A stretch of 37,604 bases of DNA from Pseudomonadota bacterium (GTDB taxonomy: Bacteria > Pseudomonadota > Gammaproteobacteria > SURF-13), in the NCBI GenBank assembly GCA_027624315.1, contig JAQBXX010000013.1, positions 1 to 37,604 on the forward strand. The letters run 5' to 3'. Below, one piece after another: positions 13,230 through 25,493 of this stretch; the stretch's first letter is position 1, and each line of letters begins with the position of its first letter. Under the pieces are notes generated by a model, which had not been told where the DNA came from, did no database searches, and saw only the letters and a list, made by a program, of their open reading frames with translations. The translations under genes were made by a program, and so were the position numbers.

Positions 13230-14558
13230 TTACAGGCGAGGTGTGCTGGGCGCCGGTAACACGAGGAAGCCCGGGTCGGTGTCCTTGCCCTCGGCCATGA
13301 TGAGCCCAAAGATGAAGGCGGGCACGGCGGTTCCTTTGCGTCCATTGATGACGACGAGGGGTGTGCCTTCGATCTGGTATTTTTCCGCAAGCTCGATGTC
13401 TTCCTTGAGCACGCTGGCAGTGGCGGGGGAGTTGACGCAGCCTTCGATTGCCTTGCGCCGTGCACTGTCGTCGTTCGCGGCAATGGTCCAGATGCGGTTT
13501 ATAGTGAGACTGGCCTGGTCCTTGAACATGGTTGAGCGCACGCGGCTGAACTCAGGCGTGCCGCGCAGGCATATCTGTATCTTGGCGGCGAGGCAACTGA
13601 CGCCGCCGGAGCTGCGCTGGATCGAGGGATTGCATTCGCTGTCGAGCGGGTAATGACGTGCCTCTTCGCTCCAGGTGCCCGGCGGTGTGATGCCGCGGAT
13701 CTCTTCCAGCGCGGCCTCAAGTTGCTGGCAGTGCGAACAGCGGATGTCGGTCCACTCGGTGATGTGTACCGGCGCGTTCACCGGGCCGAAGCTGGTGCGC
13801 TGGGCGTCTGCGGCGATGACCAGGGGTTTGGATTTGCGGTAGATGTCGAGCGAGTCGCTGGTGGCCTGCTGGACGCCGGCGGGCAGCGAGTTTAAAAATT
13901 TCACCAGCGGACTCACCGGCGCCTGTGCGTTTGCTTCTTTCAGCACGGTGGATATCTTGGCGGTGCTCAAGTCCTCGCGCGGGGTATGCAGGCCGGGATA
14001 GATCAGCGCCGAGAGCGTCACGATCAGCACGGCGCCGCTTTTGAGCGTAGCCTGCAACCAGTGCGGAGCGCCGGCGGAAAGTCGCGCATAGGCGAGCCAT
14101 GCGGCGGCGGCGACCAGCACGTAAAACAGCACGCAGGTGGGGCAGAAGGTCTGGATGGCAAAGCTGTAGCCGAGCAGCGAAAGCGCGATCAATGCGCCTG
14201 CTCCGGTGACGATGCGCAAGGCCTGCACGGTGTCGTTCATGGCGGTTCCCTTGGTGGTTTGGTAACGCAACATGCCCGCGAGCACCAGTACCACAATGCT
14301 CCACGCCAGGCCCCAGCCCGCGATAGGCAAGCCGCTCGTCTGGTGGACGGCGTGGGCCAGCGGCGAGTTCCACACCCCGGCGCAGTCGAAGGTGGCGCTG
14401 AACGAGCATAGCGGCGCGGTGCCGCGCACGCGCAATAAGTAGAGCTCGACCCATTGGTACGTCGTGAGCAGAACGCTGAGCGATGCTACGCCGATCAGAA
14501 GCAGTGCGCTCAGCGCCTCACGGACGCGCTGTGGTTGAATGGCAGAATGTGATGGCAT
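13230..14558 (-). CDS. VKOR-DsbA-like fusion, disulfide-bond-forming membrane protein
   Basis: A 442-residue fusion. Residues 1-190 are a VKOR (vitamin K epoxide reductase) membrane domain: about five hydrophobic helices, the loop cysteine pair Cys51 and Cys59 (CSFSATFDC), the following W-N-S-P, and the quinone-side CPTC motif at 139-142. Residues about 245-430 are a DsbA/thioredoxin-like domain with redox motif CSHC (274-277) and a cis-Pro loop (GTPLVV). The expected role is oxidation of cysteines in exported proteins, with electrons passed from the DsbA-like domain through VKOR to quinone, replacing separate DsbA and DsbB. The thioredoxin domain also contains extra cysteines (near 320-340 and 385). 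It stands alone, transcribed against both flanks. Confidence 0.88.
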   Translation of the reverse strand: MPSHSAIQPQRVREALSALLLIGVASLSVLLTTYQWVELYLLRVRGTAPLCSFSATFDCAGVWNSPLAHAVHQTSGLPIAGWGLAWSIVVLVLAGMLRYQTTKGTAMNDTVQALRIVTGAGALIALSLLGYSFAIQTFCPTCVLFYVLVAAAAWLAYARLSAGAPHWLQATLKSGAVLIVTLSALIYPGLHTPREDLSTAKISTVLKEANAQAPVSPLVKFLNSLPAGVQQATSDSLDIYRKSKPLVIAADAQRTSFGPVNAPVHITEWTDIRCSHCQQLEAALEEIRGITPPGTWSEEARHYPLDSECNPSIQRSSGGVSCLAAKIQICLRGTPEFSRVRSTMFKDQASLTINRIWTIAANDDSARRKAIEGCVNSPATASVLKEDIELAEKYQIEGTPLVVINGRKGTAVPAFIFGLIMAEGKDTDPGFLVLPAPSTPRL

Positions 14559-15622: not shown

Positions 15623-16042
15623 ATGCAACTCAAAGGCAGCAAAACCCATGACAATCTGAAGGCCGCCTTCGCGGGCGAGTCTCAAGCCAACCGCCGTTAT
15701 CTCTACTTCGCCGCCAAGGCCGATGTCGAGGGTTATAACGACGTGTCCGCCGTATTCCGCTCCACCGCCGAGGGTGAAACCGGCCATGCGCACGGCCATC
15801 TGGAGTATATGGAGGCCTGCGGCGACCCGGCCACCGATCTTCCCATCGGCCCCACCAGTGATAACCTGAAGGCCGCGATAGCGGGCGAGACCCACGAGTA
15901 CACCGATATGTACCCAGGCATGTCCCAGGCCGCGCGCGGTGAAGGTTTCGGCGAGATCGCCGACTGGTTCGAGACACTCGCCAAGGCCGAACGTTCGCAC
16001 GCCAACCGCTTCCAGAAGGCGCTCGACAGCTTAGACAAATAA
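15623..16042 (+). CDS. Rubrerythrin (ferritin-like domain only)
   Basis: A 139-residue diiron peroxidase that reduces hydrogen peroxide in the cytosol. The two half-ferritin repeats are visible: [11 protein letters not shown] with Glu19 and [10 protein letters not shown] (Glu52, His55), then [11 protein letters not shown] (Glu89, Glu92) and [11 protein letters not shown] (Glu123, His126), giving the full set of carboxylate and histidine ligands. The C-terminal rubredoxin domain (two CxxC) of classical rubrerythrin is absent, so electrons must come from another protein; the adjacent Fe-S protein is a candidate. A GAGGAA ribosome-binding site precedes the ATG. It is first gene of the cluster with Fe-S protein, EncFtn-like protein and DUF3501, and has its own promoter, operator and terminator. 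Confidence 0.93.
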
Positions 16043-16045
16043 GTT

Positions 16046-16204
16046 AAAGGCAGATACAAGATACAAGTTGCAAGATACAAGTAAAAGCGGGGCCGTCTTG
16101 TGCGGCCCCGTATTTGTTCAAAGGGAGTTACAAGAGTAAAGATGCCATGAGGTAAGGCAGGACAATAGTTTGTAACTTGTATCTTTACTCTTTTATCTTT
16201 TCTC
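16046..16204. repeat. Family F heptamer-armed inverted repeat
   Basis: The outer left arm is a run of 7-mers (gatacaa, gatacaa, gttgcaa, gatacaa, gtaaaag). The right arm is the complementary kind (cttgtat, ctttact, cttttat, ctttt) and ends 10 bp before the next start codon. An inner pair (gttacaa/ttgtaac and gagtaaagat/atctttactc) also forms. The rubrerythrin terminator is enclosed between the arms. Confidence 0.75.
16088..16118 (+). terminator. Rho-independent terminator after rubrerythrin
   Basis: CGGGGCCG and CGGCCCCG form a perfect 8-bp GC stem with a 7-nt loop, followed by the T-rich tatttgtt. Confidence 0.8.
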
Positions 16205-16213
16205 TGAGGTTAT

Positions 16214-17557
16214 ATGGCACCCACCGAAGGTCAACGTGAAGGCAGTCTGGAGGCGCCCACGCGTCACGACCTGGACTGGAAAAATCCCGAATTTTACAAC
16301 GAACCCGCGCTGCTGCATGAACTCGAGCGGGTGTTTGATATTTGCCATGGCTGCCGCCGTTGCTTCAATCTGTGCCAGTCGTTTCCGACGCTGTTCGATG
16401 CCATCGACGCGTCACCCACGATGGAACTCGACAGCGTGGATAAAAAAGTGTACTGGGAAGTGGTCGATCACTGCTACCTGTGCGACATGTGCTTCATGAC
16501 CAAGTGCCCCTATGTGCCGCCGCACCCGTTCAACGTCGACTTCCCTCATCTCATGTTGCGCGCCAAGGCGGTAAAGTATCAGAAGGGTGAGGTAAAGACG
16601 CGCGACAGGATTCTCACCAGCACCGACACCGTAGGCAAGCTCGCCGGCATCCCGGTAGTCGTTCAAATAGTCAACGCGGCGAATAAAAACAAGGCGGCGC
16701 GTAAAATTCTGGACAAGACACTGGGCGTGCATCCGGACGCCTTCGTGCCGGAATATCACAGTGACACGCTGCACAAGCGCGAACGTGCGCGCGAGCGTCT
16801 GGAAGCCACCGCCATGCCGACGGCCAGCACACGCGGCAAGGTGGCACTGTTCGCCACCTGTTACGGCAATTACAACGAGCCGCAACTGGGCCAGGATTTG
16901 ATTGCGATCTTCGAGCACAACGGCATCCCGGTGCGGCTGGCCGAAAAAGAACAGTGCTGCGGCATGCCCAAACTTGAGCTCGGCGATCTCGACGCGGTGG
17001 CGCGCGCCAAGGACGCCAATATCCCGGTGCTGGCGCAACTGGTGGACGCGGGCTGGGATATTGTCGCGCCGGTGCCGTCCTGCGTGCTGATGTTCAAGCA
17101 GGAACTGCCGCTCATGTTCCCCGGCGACAAGGATGTGCTGAAGGTGAAGAATGCCATCTATGATCCGTTTGAATATCTCATGCTGCGGCACAAGGACGGC
17201 GCGCTCAAGACCGATTTCAAGCAACCGCTGGGCAAGGTTGCCTATCATGTGGCGTGCCATGTGCGCGTGCAAAACATGGGGCTCAAGACGCGCGAGGTGC
17301 TGCAACTCGTGCCCGATACCCAGGTGGAGCCGATAGAGCGCTGCTCCGGCCACAACGGCACCTACGCGGCGAAGAGCGAATTTCATGCGCAGGCGATGAA
17401 GATCGGCAGGCCGGTGGTCGAGCGCATTGCGAAGTCCGGTGCTGACCACTATACGAGCGACTGCCCGATTGCCGGGCACCATCTGGGTGCGGGACTGGCG
17501 AACGGCACTCAGCCCACGCACCCGCTTACCCTGTTACGTACTGCTTACGGGATCTGA
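16214..17557 (+). CDS. Heterodisulfide reductase/GlpC-like Fe-S oxidoreductase subunit
   Basis: A 447-residue electron-transfer protein. The N-terminal third has two [4Fe-4S] sites: CHGCRRCFNLC (Cys44, 47, 50, 54) and CYLCDMCFMTKCPY (Cys87, 90, 93, 98). The C-terminal part has two CCG-type cysteine-rich domains: ATCYGNYNEP...CCGMP, and ACHVRVQNMG...CSGHNGTY, in which CCG reads CSG. There is no signal peptide or membrane helix. This family is commonly encoded beside rubrerythrin and DUF3501 proteins. Here it probably supplies electrons to the rubredoxin-less rubrerythrin, which is inference. The 4-bp gap to the following EncFtn-like gene indicates one transcript. No ribosome-binding site of note: the leader is taken by repeat F. 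Confidence 0.87.
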   Translation: MAPTEGQREGSLEAPTRHDLDWKNPEFYNEPALLHELERVFDICHGCRRCFNLCQSFPTLFDAIDASPTMELDSVDKKVYWEVVDHCYLCDMCFMTKCPYVPPHPFNVDFPHLMLRAKAVKYQKGEVKTRDRILTSTDTVGKLAGIPVVVQIVNAANKNKAARKILDKTLGVHPDAFVPEYHSDTLHKRERARERLEATAMPTASTRGKVALFATCYGNYNEPQLGQDLIAIFEHNGIPVRLAEKEQCCGMPKLELGDLDAVARAKDANIPVLAQLVDAGWDIVAPVPSCVLMFKQELPLMFPGDKDVLKVKNAIYDPFEYLMLRHKDGALKTDFKQPLGKVAYHVACHVRVQNMGLKTREVLQLVPDTQVEPIERCSGHNGTYAAKSEFHAQAMKIGRPVVERIAKSGADHYTSDCPIAGHHLGAGLANGTQPTHPLTLLRTAYGI

Positions 17558-17562
17558 ACGCC

Positions 17563-17868
17563 ATGGCCAATGAGGGTTATCACGAAGCGATTGAAAGTCT
17601 GAGCGACGCAACGCGCGACATGCACCGCGCCATCGTCTCGCTCATGGAGGAACTGGAGGCGGTGGACTGGTACAACCAGCGTGTGGACGCCTGCAAGGAC
17701 GACGAACTGCGCGCCGTGCTCGCGCACAATCGTGATGAGGAAAAGGAACACGCGGCGATGGTGCTGGAATGGATACGGCGCCGCGATCCTGTGTTTGACA
17801 AGGAATTGCGCGATTATCTCTTCACCGACAAGCCGCTGGCCGCGCTTGAAGCAAAGCATAAACCGTGA
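17563..17868 (+). CDS. Encapsulated-ferritin (EncFtn) family protein without cargo peptide
   Basis: A 101-residue helical hairpin protein. The core HRAIVSLMEELEAVDWY and LAHNRDEEKEHAAMVLEW closely resembles the encapsulated ferritin of Rhodospirillum rubrum, including the ferroxidase ligands (Glu30/Glu32, Glu60, His63) and Trp36. Known EncFtn proteins oxidise ferrous iron as ring-shaped decamers inside an encapsulin shell, to which they are targeted by a short C-terminal peptide. Here the protein stops at KHKP, soon after the conserved LFT segment, with no targeting peptide, and no encapsulin gene is present in the window. It is therefore a free-standing ferroxidase candidate. Its stop codon TGA is followed 14 bp later by the DUF3501 start. 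Confidence 0.88.
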   Translation: MANEGYHEAIESLSDATRDMHRAIVSLMEELEAVDWYNQRVDACKDDELRAVLAHNRDEEKEHAAMVLEWIRRRDPVFDKELRDYLFTDKPLAALEAKHKP

Positions 17869-17882
17869 CAGGATTCGTCGCC

Positions 17883-18467
17883 ATGAAAAAGCTCAGCCGT
17901 GACATGCTGTACCCGCTGGAGCAGTACGCACGCATGCGTAACGAATTCCGCGCCAAGGTCATGGAGCATAAAACCCACCGCCGTGTGCCGGTAGGGCCGC
18001 ACGCCACGCTGTATTTCGAAGACCAGCTCACCATGCACTACCAGGTGCAGGAGATGTTGCGCGTGGAACGCATCTTCGAGGAAGCAGGCATACTCGAAGA
18101 GATCGAGGCCTACAATCCGCTCGTTCCCGATGGTGCCAACTGGAAGGCGACCTTCATGATCCAGTACGACGACGAGGGTGAGCGCCGCGGCGCGCTTGCG
18201 CGCATGATCGGCATTGAAGACCGCGTGTGGGTGAAGGTGGGCGGCCATGAGCACGTGTGGGCGATTGCCGATGAGGATCTGGAGCGCGAGAATGAGCAAA
18301 AGACTTCCTCGGTGCATTTCCTGCGCTTCGAGCTGACGCCGGCGATGGTCGCCGCGGCCAAGGCCGGCGCCGCCATCGGTGTGGGCATCGAGCACCCGGC
18401 GTACTGCCACCAGGCCGACCCGGTGCCGGACGATGTGCGCGCGTCGCTGGTGCAGGACCTGGATTGA
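17883..18467 (+). CDS. DUF3501 family protein
   Basis: A 194-residue cytosolic protein of the DUF3501 family, recognised from YEDQLTMHYQVQEMLRVERIFEE-type sequence (here YFEDQLTMHYQ) and from WKATFMIQYDDEGER. The family has no established biochemical function but is repeatedly found next to rubrerythrin and a GlpC-like Fe-S protein, as here. The ATG at 17883 (MKKLSRDML) is preferred; an AGGA lies 9 nt upstream. A GTG at 17865 overlapping the previous stop would add six residues. It probably belongs to the same transcript as the two genes upstream. A role in peroxide or iron handling is inference from context alone. Confidence 0.85.
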   Translation: MKKLSRDMLYPLEQYARMRNEFRAKVMEHKTHRRVPVGPHATLYFEDQLTMHYQVQEMLRVERIFEEAGILEEIEAYNPLVPDGANWKATFMIQYDDEGERRGALARMIGIEDRVWVKVGGHEHVWAIADEDLERENEQKTSSVHFLRFELTPAMVAAAKAGAAIGVGIEHPAYCHQADPVPDDVRASLVQDLD

Positions 18468-18477
18468 TTCCGGCGTG

Positions 18478-19008
18478 ATGCACGTTCGCCTCCCTGCACT
18501 GTTGCTTCTGGTTGCACTGTTGCCTGGCCCGCTCGCCGCAGCACCCTACGAGCGCGAATATGACGAGCCCGCGCCGTGGACCGAAGATGTCAAGGCGCTG
18601 CCTGCGTTGCCGCAGGAAGACGACCTCATTGCGCTCGACGTGGATGGGCCGCAGCGCAACTTCAAGCACTACATCGACGCCAAATCCGTGGCGACGTATG
18701 GTGACGGCGTAGTCACCTACACCGTCACCATCGTCTCCGACAGCGGTGCAAAAAATATCTTCTTTGAAGGCATGCGCTGCGATATGGGGCGTTACAAGAC
18801 GTACGCCTACGGCACTGGTGATGGCGCATTTCAGCAGAGCCTGACGGCCTCGTGGCAGCGGGTGCGCACGCGTAACGGCCCGACCAACTACCGCAGCGAC
18901 CTGCTGCGTTACTACCTGTGTGATGCCAGCGGGTTTCCGCTCAAGCCGGGACAGATCATCGAACGCCTGAAGCACCCGCAGATCATTCCCTCGCGCAATA
19001 ACGGCTGA
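18478..19008 (+). CDS. CNP1-like family secreted protein
   Basis: A 176-residue protein with a clear Sec signal peptide (MHVRLPALLLLVALLPGPLAAA, cleavage predicted after about residue 22). The mature part resembles the CNP1-like family, first described as a conserved neisserial protein: AKSVATYGDGVVTYTVTIVSDSGAKNIFFEGMRC, then YKTYAYGTGDGAF. Two cysteines (MRCDMG and YYLCDASG) could form a disulfide in the periplasm. Function is unknown. The ATG at 18478 is 10 bp after the DUF3501 stop, so it may be co-transcribed with that gene, yet no strong ribosome-binding site is seen. Confidence 0.78.
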   Translation: MHVRLPALLLLVALLPGPLAAAPYEREYDEPAPWTEDVKALPALPQEDDLIALDVDGPQRNFKHYIDAKSVATYGDGVVTYTVTIVSDSGAKNIFFEGMRCDMGRYKTYAYGTGDGAFQQSLTASWQRVRTRNGPTNYRSDLLRYYLCDASGFPLKPGQIIERLKHPQIIPSRNNG

Positions 19009-23706: not shown

Positions 23707-24399
23707 GTCGCCAAATACTCCCCTGCCTATTCTCACCAGTGTGGCGCCTTCGGCGATAGCGGCCTCGAAATCCTCCGACATGCCCATCGAAAGCGTGTCG
23801 AGCGCCACACCCTGCGAACGCAGGTACTCATATGCCTCGCGCAGGGCGTGAAACGGCAGGCGCTGTTGTTCAAATTCGTGACACGGTGCGGGTATGGCCA
23901 TGAGTCCGCGCAGGCGCAGCTGCGGCAGCGCGGCTACCGCCGTGGCGAGTTCCGCCAGGTGATCGAGATCGACGCCGGATTTGCCCGGCTCACGGCTGAT
24001 ATTGACCTGAATACAGATATTGAGCGGGGGCAGGTGCGGCGGGCGTTGCGCGCTCAGACGCTGCGCGATGCCGAGCCGGTCGACACTGTGCACCCAGGAA
24101 AAGTGGGCCGCGACGCCTTGCGTTTTATTGCTTTGCAGCGGCCCGATGAAGTGCCACTCGAGGGCGCACTCCTGCAGAAGCGCAGCGGTGATTTTGGGCA
24201 GGGCCTCTTGCAGATAATTTTCGCCGAAGCGAGTCTGCCCGCATTCGCGGCAGGCGTTGGCAATTGTCTCGACCGCTACCGTTTTGCTCACCGCCACGAG
24301 TTGCACCGAGCCCGGCGCGCGTCCGTAGCGTATCTCGGCGCGCGCAATCCGCTCGCGCACAGCCTTGATGCGGTCGGCCAGTGATCGGGTTGCATGCAT
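23698..24399 (-). CDS. yggS: YggS family pyridoxal-phosphate homeostasis protein
   Basis: A 233-residue PLP-binding TIM-barrel protein (PLPBP/YggS), a single-domain relative of alanine racemase thought to buffer PLP, not to catalyse a reaction. LVAVSKT contains the PLP lysine (Lys39). FGENYLQEA, WHFIGPLQSNK, the VNISREPGKSGV loop and SMGMSEDFEAAI-EGAT-VRIG complete the family pattern. The TAG stop falls in the arm of the flanking repeat. It is divergent from pilT, with a 56-bp spacer, as in Pseudomonas. Confidence 0.95.
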   Translation of the reverse strand: MHATRSLADRIKAVRERIARAEIRYGRAPGSVQLVAVSKTVAVETIANACRECGQTRFGENYLQEALPKITAALLQECALEWHFIGPLQSNKTQGVAAHFSWVHSVDRLGIAQRLSAQRPPHLPPLNICIQVNISREPGKSGVDLDHLAELATAVAALPQLRLRGLMAIPAPCHEFEQQRLPFHALREAYEYLRSQGVALDTLSMGMSEDFEAAIAEGATLVRIGRGVFGDRG

Positions 24400-24455
24400 G
24401 CGGTGTACGTTGTACCTTAGCCTTATATAGTCACATCATACCAGCAGGACGTTTT

Positions 24456-25493
24456 ATGGACATTGCCGAACTGCTTGCCTTCAGCGTAAAAAACAACGCC
24501 TCCGACCTCCATCTTTCTGCCGGTCTGCCGCCGATGATCCGCGTTGATGGCGACATCCGCCGCATCAACCTGCCGCCCCTGGAGCACAAGGAGGTGCACG
24601 CGCTGATCTACGACATCATGAACGACAAGCAGCGCAAGGATTATGAAGAATTTCTGGAGACCGATTTTTCGTTTGAAATCCCCGGCCTCGCGCGCTTCCG
24701 CGTCAACGCCTTCAATCACAACCGTGGCGCGGGTGGCGTGTTTCGCACCATTCCGTCCAAGATCAAAACACTGGATGAACTCAATTGTCCGCAGATATTC
24801 AAGGAGATCATCGACCAGCCGCGTGGCGTGGTACTGGTCACCGGCCCGACCGGCTCGGGAAAATCCACCACGCTCGCGGCGATGATCGACTACATCAACG
24901 ACCGGGAATTCGGCCGTATCCTCACGGTGGAAGACCCCATCGAGTTTGTGCACGAGAGCAAGAAGTGCCTCATCAACTAGCGTGAGGTGCATCGCGACAC
25001 GCTGGGCTTCAATGAGGCGTTGCGCTCGGCGCTGCGCGAAGACCCGGATATTGTTCTGGTAGGCGAGATGCGCAATCTGGAGACCATTCGCCTTGCGCTC
25101 ACCGCCGCCGAGACCGGGCACCTGGTGTTCGGTACGCTGCACACCAGCTCCGCGGCCAAGACCATCGACCGTATCATCGACGTGTTCCCGGCGGCGGAAA
25201 AGGACATGATGCGCGCGATGCTGTCGGAGAGCCTGCGCGCGGTGGTGTCGCAGGCGCTGTTGAAAAAGGTGGGCGGTGGGCGCATCGCGGCGCATGAGAT
25301 CATGATCGGCACGCCGGCGATCCGTAACCTGATCCGCGAAAACAAGGTGCCGCAGATATATTCGTCGATCCAGACCGGGCAGGCCGTGGGCATGCAGACG
25401 CTCGATCAGTGCATGCAAGGTATGGTGTCGCGCGGCCAGGTGGACAAGGCGGAGGCACGCGGTTACGCTATGAACAAGGACACCTTCAAGTAG
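24456..25493 (+). pseudogene. pilT: Twitching motility ATPase PilT, interrupted by an in-frame amber codon
   Basis: Hexameric ATPase that powers type IV pilus retraction at the cytoplasmic membrane. The frame encodes a full-length 345-codon PilT: MDIAELLAFSVKNNASDLHLSAG, Walker A GPTGSGKST at 130-138, ASP-box and LTVEDPIEFVH, then after the stop REVHRDTLGF, the Walker B VLVGEMRNLETI, TAAETGHLVFGTLHT and the conserved tail. Codon 175 (24978-24980) is TAG where the family has Gln (LINQREV; pilU in this window has IVTQREV), so one C-to-T change from CAG. The rest of the gene has no other lesion. It could be a recent nonsense mutation, a sequencing error or a suppressed codon. A GTG at 24987 could restart translation but would lack Walker A. 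An AGGA precedes the start. Confidence 0.9.

What the first reader, a model, noticed from the sequence alone, without database searches (positions are those of the whole stretch)
17563..17868. EncFtn-family ferritin without encapsulin or targeting peptide, in a rubrerythrin cluster
The protein has the EncFtn core and ferroxidase ligands, but ends soon after the conserved LFT segment, and neither shell gene nor cargo peptide is present. It is instead embedded in a rubrerythrin, HdrD/GlpC-like Fe-S protein, DUF3501, CNP1-like series. EncFtn needs a shell to store iron, so a free form may act as a cytosolic ferroxidase feeding iron or scavenging peroxide with rubrerythrin. The five-gene combination is a candidate new iron/peroxide module.
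Basis: partly seen in the sequence, partly recalled or inferred. Interest (0 to 1): 0.72.

Follow-up and report, generated by a model that had tools for sequence, protein, structure and literature searches.

The report
Shell-free EncFtn ferroxidase beside rubrerythrin
A small iron-oxidising protein, known mainly as cargo of a virus-like protein shell, is encoded here with no shell and no docking tag, inside a peroxide-defence gene cluster, and a survey of 369 related genomes shows that most copies of it live without any shell.

Summary
Window 17563-17868 encodes a 101-aa EncFtn protein (PF22277; closest solved structure 3K6C, N. europaea NE0167) with all iron ligands and a 13-residue tail without a targeting peptide. 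The 1.43-Mb genome, listed as 100% complete, has no encapsulin. The gene lies between the Fe-S oxidoreductase and DUF3501 genes of the "aerobic-type" rubrerythrin cluster. Both parts are known: the rubrerythrin/RFO/DUF3501 trio (Cardenas 2016) and short EncFtn ("s-FLP"), for which a 2024 review left encapsulation open and proposed the tail as a putative targeting peptide.
What I found no report of is the survey. Of 369 class genomes, 98 carry full-length EncFtn. All 19 genomes with a shell have a long-tailed or shell-fused copy at the shell. The other 79 have no shell. None of 178 copies away from a shell carries the targeting motif, yet Glu30, Glu60 and His63 are invariant. In 24 genomes of 19 families the gene sits in the rubrerythrin cluster; three genomes carry both a shell copy and a cluster copy. 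CNP1 follows DUF3501 regardless of EncFtn, so "five-gene module" overstates it.
Most likely a free cytosolic ferroxidase removing Fe(II) alongside the peroxide reductase; the coupling is inferred. New variant of a known kind.

The parts
15623..16042 (+). aerobic-type rubrerythrin (RBR), 139 aa, no rubredoxin domain
   Evidence: PF02915 102 bits, no CxxC motif; type as described in PMC5114695
16043..16213 (+). RBR-RFO spacer with GC-rich hairpin 16087-16111 and three copies of AAGATACAAGT
   Evidence: the terminator scan as a whole found no more sites than shuffles do
16214..17557 (+). [quoted passage not shown]
   Evidence: PF02754 58.7 bits; GlpC models match below their cut-offs; motifs
17563..17868 (+). 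short EncFtn-type ferritin-like protein, 101 aa, without targeting peptide
   Evidence: PF22277 150 bits, 3K6C 159 bits, ligands invariant in relatives
17883..18467 (+). DUF3501 protein; GTG at 17865 overlapping the EncFtn stop is an alternative start
   Evidence: PF12007 248.6 bits; model pLDDT 90 matches 3FJV, unknown function
18478..19008 (+). CNP1-like protein with predicted signal peptide; optional neighbour
   Evidence: PF08750 124 bits; N-terminus; neighbour of DUF3501 in 41 of 65 CNP1 genomes

Best explanation
The gene makes a free EncFtn: a small two-helix ferroxidase, expected to form the decamer seen in 3K6C, that works in the cytosol without an encapsulin. It serves as an optional accessory of the aerobic rubrerythrin module. 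It would bind Fe(II) at the dimer-interface di-iron centre and oxidise it with O2 or H2O2, draining the Fenton-reactive pool. Rubrerythrin would reduce H2O2, with RFO replacing the missing rubredoxin as electron donor. Fe(III) would not be stored in EncFtn but passed on, for example to the genome's bacterioferritin-like protein, or re-reduced. Shown here: no shell, no tag, conserved ligands, recurrent gene linkage, coexistence with a separate shell-type paralogue. Inferred: decamer in this species, ferroxidase activity, fate of Fe(III), coupling to rubrerythrin/RFO.
For: No encapsulin in the genome. In the class, 19 of 19 shell genomes have EncFtn at the shell, while 79 EncFtn genomes have no shell, 70 of them at least 90% complete and 8 on one or two contigs. 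Targeting motif in 0 of 178 copies away from a shell against 19 of 21 at a shell; of the two others, one is shell-fused and one (NIGSLR) my pattern missed. Glu30, Glu60 and His63 invariant in all 178. EncFtn inside the RBR/RFO/DUF3501 cluster in 24 genomes of 19 families. G014, G196 and G247 carry a shell-associated copy and a separate short copy in the cluster. Copies away from shells are more conserved between families (78% against 62% identity; 75% against 60% in six families having both). Model matches 3K6C. A 158-aa ferritin-family (PF00210) protein, bacterioferritin-like by my reading, exists elsewhere in the genome. Literature: EncFtn alone is a ferroxidase but cannot store iron (PMC5012862); a rubrerythrin of this type is a peroxidase essential for aerobic growth in Hydrogenobacter (PMC3317640).
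Against: About three quarters of the short EncFtn genes in the class are not near rubrerythrin, so the partnership is not obligatory. No biochemistry exists for any short EncFtn that I could find. Isolated R. rubrum EncFtn precipitates iron in vitro at high load (PMC5012862), which is awkward for a free ferroxidase. Co-occurrence statistics are not corrected for shared ancestry.
Confidence: 0.62

Rival explanations
1. EncFtn here is a second peroxide (or O2) reductase rather than an iron handler: its di-iron centre cycles between Fe(II) and Fe(III) with electrons from RFO, like rubrerythrin, and no net iron is moved.
For: The gene lies directly between RFO and DUF3501 in 18 of 24 cluster genomes, and the di-iron ligands are invariant. 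A cycling enzyme would need no storage compartment. A few stand-alone copies lie next to AhpC/TSA and pyridine-nucleotide oxidoreductase genes.
Against: No EncFtn is known to be reduced by a protein partner. Its centre is symmetric and sits at a dimer interface, unlike rubrerythrin's. Most copies lack RFO nearby.
Confidence: 0.2
2. Short EncFtn is encapsulated after all, through an uncharacterised short tail (LFTDKPIAHE was proposed as a putative targeting peptide in PMC11202242).
For: 3K6C is decameric like the known cargoes, and fusion-type EncFtn is joined to its shell by only 8 residues (PMC11202242).
Against: 79 class genomes with EncFtn, including 8 on one or two contigs, have no PF04454 shell to load. 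In G014, G196 and G247, where a shell exists, it has its own tagged or fused EncFtn.
Confidence: 0.05
3. EncFtn acts as an iron donor or metallation factor that loads the di-iron centre of rubrerythrin or the Fe-S clusters of RFO.
For: Tight gene linkage with iron proteins; a small open decamer that cannot retain mineral (PMC5012862).
Against: Most aerobic-type rubrerythrin clusters have no EncFtn: 160 class genomes have DUF3501, but only 23 have EncFtn next to it.
Confidence: 0.1

Closest known systems
NE0167 of Nitrosomonas europaea (PDB 3K6C), short EncFtn or s-FLP class
   Same: About 78% identical over the core, same two-helix fold and ligands, short tail, no targeting peptide
   Different: Window protein has a 13-residue LExxHK-type tail and lies in a rubrerythrin cluster; the genomic setting of NE0167 was not examined here
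R. rubrum and H. ochraceum EncFtn (5DA5, 5N5F), cargo of encapsulins
   Same: Same PF22277 core, same ferroxidase and entry-site residues
   Different: No 26-46 residue tail with targeting peptide, no shell gene
Aerobic-type rubrerythrin module RBR-RFO-DUF3501 (Cardenas, Quatrini, Holmes 2016, PMC5114695)
   Same: All three genes present, RBR without rubredoxin domain
   Different: EncFtn inserted between RFO and DUF3501. A search of that paper's main text for 'encapsul' found nothing and 'ferritin' five times, none of the passages shown linking a ferritin gene to the cluster; its supplements were not readable
Archaeal EncFtn-shell fusions in operons with rubrerythrin (PMC8346489)
   Same: EncFtn next to rubrerythrin genes
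   Different: There the EncFtn is fused to an encapsulin; here no shell exists
Dps and bacterioferritin
   Same: Possible role in removing Fe(II) under peroxide stress (established knowledge)
   Different: Those are four-helix subunits that form storage cages; EncFtn is a two-helix open decamer

Membership tests
EncFtn-like (PF22277 / TIGR04535) | Profile score over the curated cut-off | tested here: met
   150.3 bits vs 27; 140.4 vs 125
EncFtn-like (PF22277 / TIGR04535) | Ferroxidase residues Glu32, Tyr39, Glu62, His65 and entry site Glu31/Glu34 (R. rubrum numbering) | tested here: met
   E30, Y37, E60, H63, E29, E32 in the window protein; ferroxidase Glu/His invariant in 178 relatives
EncFtn-like (PF22277 / TIGR04535) | Annular decamer of two-helix subunits | not testable with these tools
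   Monomer model matches 3K6C; oligomer not modelled
Encapsulated EncFtn (cargo of encapsulin) | C-terminal targeting peptide | tested here: not met
   Tail DKPLAALEAKHKP; motif absent
Encapsulated EncFtn (cargo of encapsulin) | Encapsulin shell gene in the genome | tested here: not met
   PF04454 and PF19307 absent
Short EncFtn (s-FLP, type 3K6C) | EncFtn core with short C-terminus and no apparent targeting peptide | tested here: met
   class defined in PMC11202242
Aerobic-type rubrerythrin module | RBR without rubredoxin domain, with adjacent RFO and DUF3501 | tested here: met
   definition PMC5114695
Cage ferritin / bacterioferritin / Dps | Ferritin profile PF00210 | tested here: not met
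   EncFtn frame not hit by PF00210; the only strong genome hit is elsewhere, at C34
Ferroxidase (activity) | Catalysed Fe(II) oxidation | not testable with these tools
   Inferred from ligands; needs an assay

The most novel reading that the evidence does not exclude
The shell-free EncFtn is the common working form of the family in this class. It acts as a free di-iron enzyme, coupled in many lineages to rubrerythrin and RFO, that detoxifies iron and peroxide without storing iron, and the encapsulin-bound form is a specialisation of it.
Probability: 0.35. Interest if true: 0.7.

Novelty: new variant of a known kind. Interest (0 to 1): 0.5.

Why it matters
EncFtn is described as needing an encapsulin to store iron, and NCBI's family model names such proteins "encapsulin-associated". 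A 2024 review left open whether the short forms are encapsulated. The survey answers this for one large bacterial class: 79 of 98 genomes with the protein have no shell to put it in. That points to a second, storage-free job for the family, gives a specific partner module to test, and warns that the automatic name is misleading for most carriers in this class.

Tried and rejected
A common partner for the stand-alone short EncFtn genes: neighbour clustering gave only antisense or alternative-frame artefacts and generic families. CNP1 as a fixed fifth member: it follows DUF3501 in 41 genomes, only 7 of them with EncFtn in the cluster. Placing cluster and stand-alone copies as separate clades: 88 columns cannot resolve it. 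Most shell copies fall in one group of 24 rows (99/93 support) that also holds 7 shell-free copies, and cluster copies are scattered. Function of DUF3501 by fold: strong match only to 3FJV, itself of unknown function; weaker beta-sandwich matches are below the reliable range. Promoter and terminator scan: counts no higher than in shuffles. Literature: of the 5 papers in the held library that name DUF3501, none was found to link it to EncFtn, but only some were opened and subscription journals are not held.

Full report
Observation. ORF 17563-17868 (+) encodes 101 residues that score 150 bits to PF22277 and 140 bits to TIGR04535, whose cut-off is 125. The best solved relative is 3K6C, protein NE0167 of Nitrosomonas europaea, at 159 bits. 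An AlphaFold model (pLDDT 81, high over residues 11-80) retrieves 3K6C and the R. rubrum and H. ochraceum EncFtn structures. The residues shown to bind iron in R. rubrum EncFtn (Glu32, Glu62, His65, with Tyr39 and the Glu31/Glu34 entry site; PMC5012862) are present as E30, E60, H63, Y37, E29 and E32. After the LFT segment only 13 residues remain, with no targeting motif.

Shell. The genome (1.43 Mb, 53 contigs, listed as 100% complete) has no family-1 encapsulin and no SrpI-like family-2 shell. Family 1 is also missing from the sampled genus-mate and two family-mates. The genome does hold a 158-aa ferritin-family (PF00210) protein on another contig, bacterioferritin-like by my reading.

Surroundings. 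Order on the + strand: rubrerythrin without CxxC motif (15623-16042), a 171-bp spacer with a GC-rich hairpin, a GlpC-like Fe-S oxidoreductase (16214-17557), EncFtn, DUF3501 (17883-18467), CNP1-like with a signal peptide (18478-19008), then parE. From the oxidoreductase to CNP1 the gaps are 5, 14 and 10 bases, which suggests one transcript. Rubrerythrin + RFO + DUF3501 is the aerobic-type module described by Cardenas and colleagues (PMC5114695), also reported in Acidihalobacter and in protists. A search of the 2016 paper's main text for 'encapsul' found nothing.

Survey for shells. In 369 class genomes, 98 carry a full-length EncFtn and 19 carry an encapsulin. All 19 encapsulin genomes carry EncFtn at the shell: adjacent in nearly all, fused in G196, and cut by a contig end in G260. 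The other 79 have no shell; 70 of these are at least 90% complete and 8 are on one or two contigs. I aligned 199 EncFtn copies from the class, from a phylum sample and from 80 named loci. The targeting motif occurs in 19 of 21 copies at a shell and in 0 of 178 elsewhere; of the two shell copies without it, one is fused and the other carries NIGSLR, which my pattern missed. Tails are 26 residues or longer at shells, with medians of 13 (cluster) and 7 (stand-alone) elsewhere. Only one copy away from a shell has a long tail (L126, G074), and it has no motif. The Glu and His ferroxidase residues are invariant in all. Whole genomes of the 80 named loci were not searched for shells, so the shell-free count rests on the 79 class genomes, plus 15 of 18 further genomes from the phylum sample.

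Cluster. EncFtn lies next to genes of the rubrerythrin module in 24 of the 98 genomes, from 19 families: between RFO and DUF3501 in 18, after DUF3501 in 4, with part of the set missing in the rest, some at contig ends. One phylum-level genome outside the class (G456) and nine named loci, including Thioalkalivibrio denitrificans, show it too. Of 67 genomes that have both EncFtn and DUF3501, 23 have them adjacent; random placement would give essentially none. G014, G196 and G247 have a tagged or fused copy at a shell and a separate untagged copy in the cluster; G236 has a shell copy and an untagged copy elsewhere. So within one genome the two forms are kept apart.

CNP1. This family follows DUF3501 within 4 kb in 41 of 65 genomes that have it, only 7 of them with EncFtn in the cluster. 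The best description is a three-gene core with EncFtn and CNP1 as separate optional additions.

Evolution. Copies away from shells are more alike between families than shell copies (78% against 62%; 75% against 60% in the six families that have both), which suggests stronger constraint. In a tree of 88 columns most shell copies group together with seven shell-free ones among them, and cluster copies are scattered; resolution is poor.

Mechanism. Free EncFtn is known to oxidise Fe(II) but not to store it (PMC5012862). A rubrerythrin of the same type is an NADPH- and FNR-dependent peroxidase needed for aerobic growth in Hydrogenobacter (PMC3317640). The simplest reading is that EncFtn lowers free Fe(II) while rubrerythrin lowers peroxide, with RFO supplying electrons to the latter. 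Whether EncFtn itself receives electrons from RFO is open. These steps are inference.

Position relative to the literature. A 2024 review (PMC11202242) lists the short form among encapsulated ferritin-like proteins, says its encapsulation is unclear and proposes LFTD(E/N)KPIAHE as a putative targeting peptide. The survey argues against that in this class. I found no paper linking EncFtn to the rubrerythrin module without a shell; the library lacks most subscription journals.

Limits. Genomes are partly drafts; counts are not phylogeny-corrected; the class was sampled, not exhausted; no assay supports the activity.

Noticed in passing
window 16043-16213: AAGATACAAGT occurs three times in the whole genome, all in this spacer, two on + and one on -, flanking a GC-rich hairpin after rubrerythrin; a hairpin-like GC stretch after rubrerythrin is also seen in many relatives.
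   Followed up: partly
window 18478-19008: CNP1-like protein with signal peptide follows DUF3501 in 41 of 65 CNP1-bearing class genomes, an association I found no report of.
   Followed up: partly
window 24381-25493: A pilT-like ATPase reads as two ORFs in one frame, interrupted by an in-frame TAG at 24978-24980; decay or a sequence error.
   Followed up: no
window 13230-14558, - strand: VKOR domain fused to a DsbA-like thioredoxin domain.
   Followed up: no
L259-L262 (G428, G408, G475, G624): Divergent EncFtn-like proteins in one genus outside the class, not next to a shell; two of the four genomes have an encapsulin elsewhere.
   Followed up: partly
L126 (G074): The only long-tailed EncFtn away from a shell: a Lys/Ala/Pro-rich tail of about 34 residues without targeting motif, with an AhpC/TSA gene nearby.
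   Followed up: no
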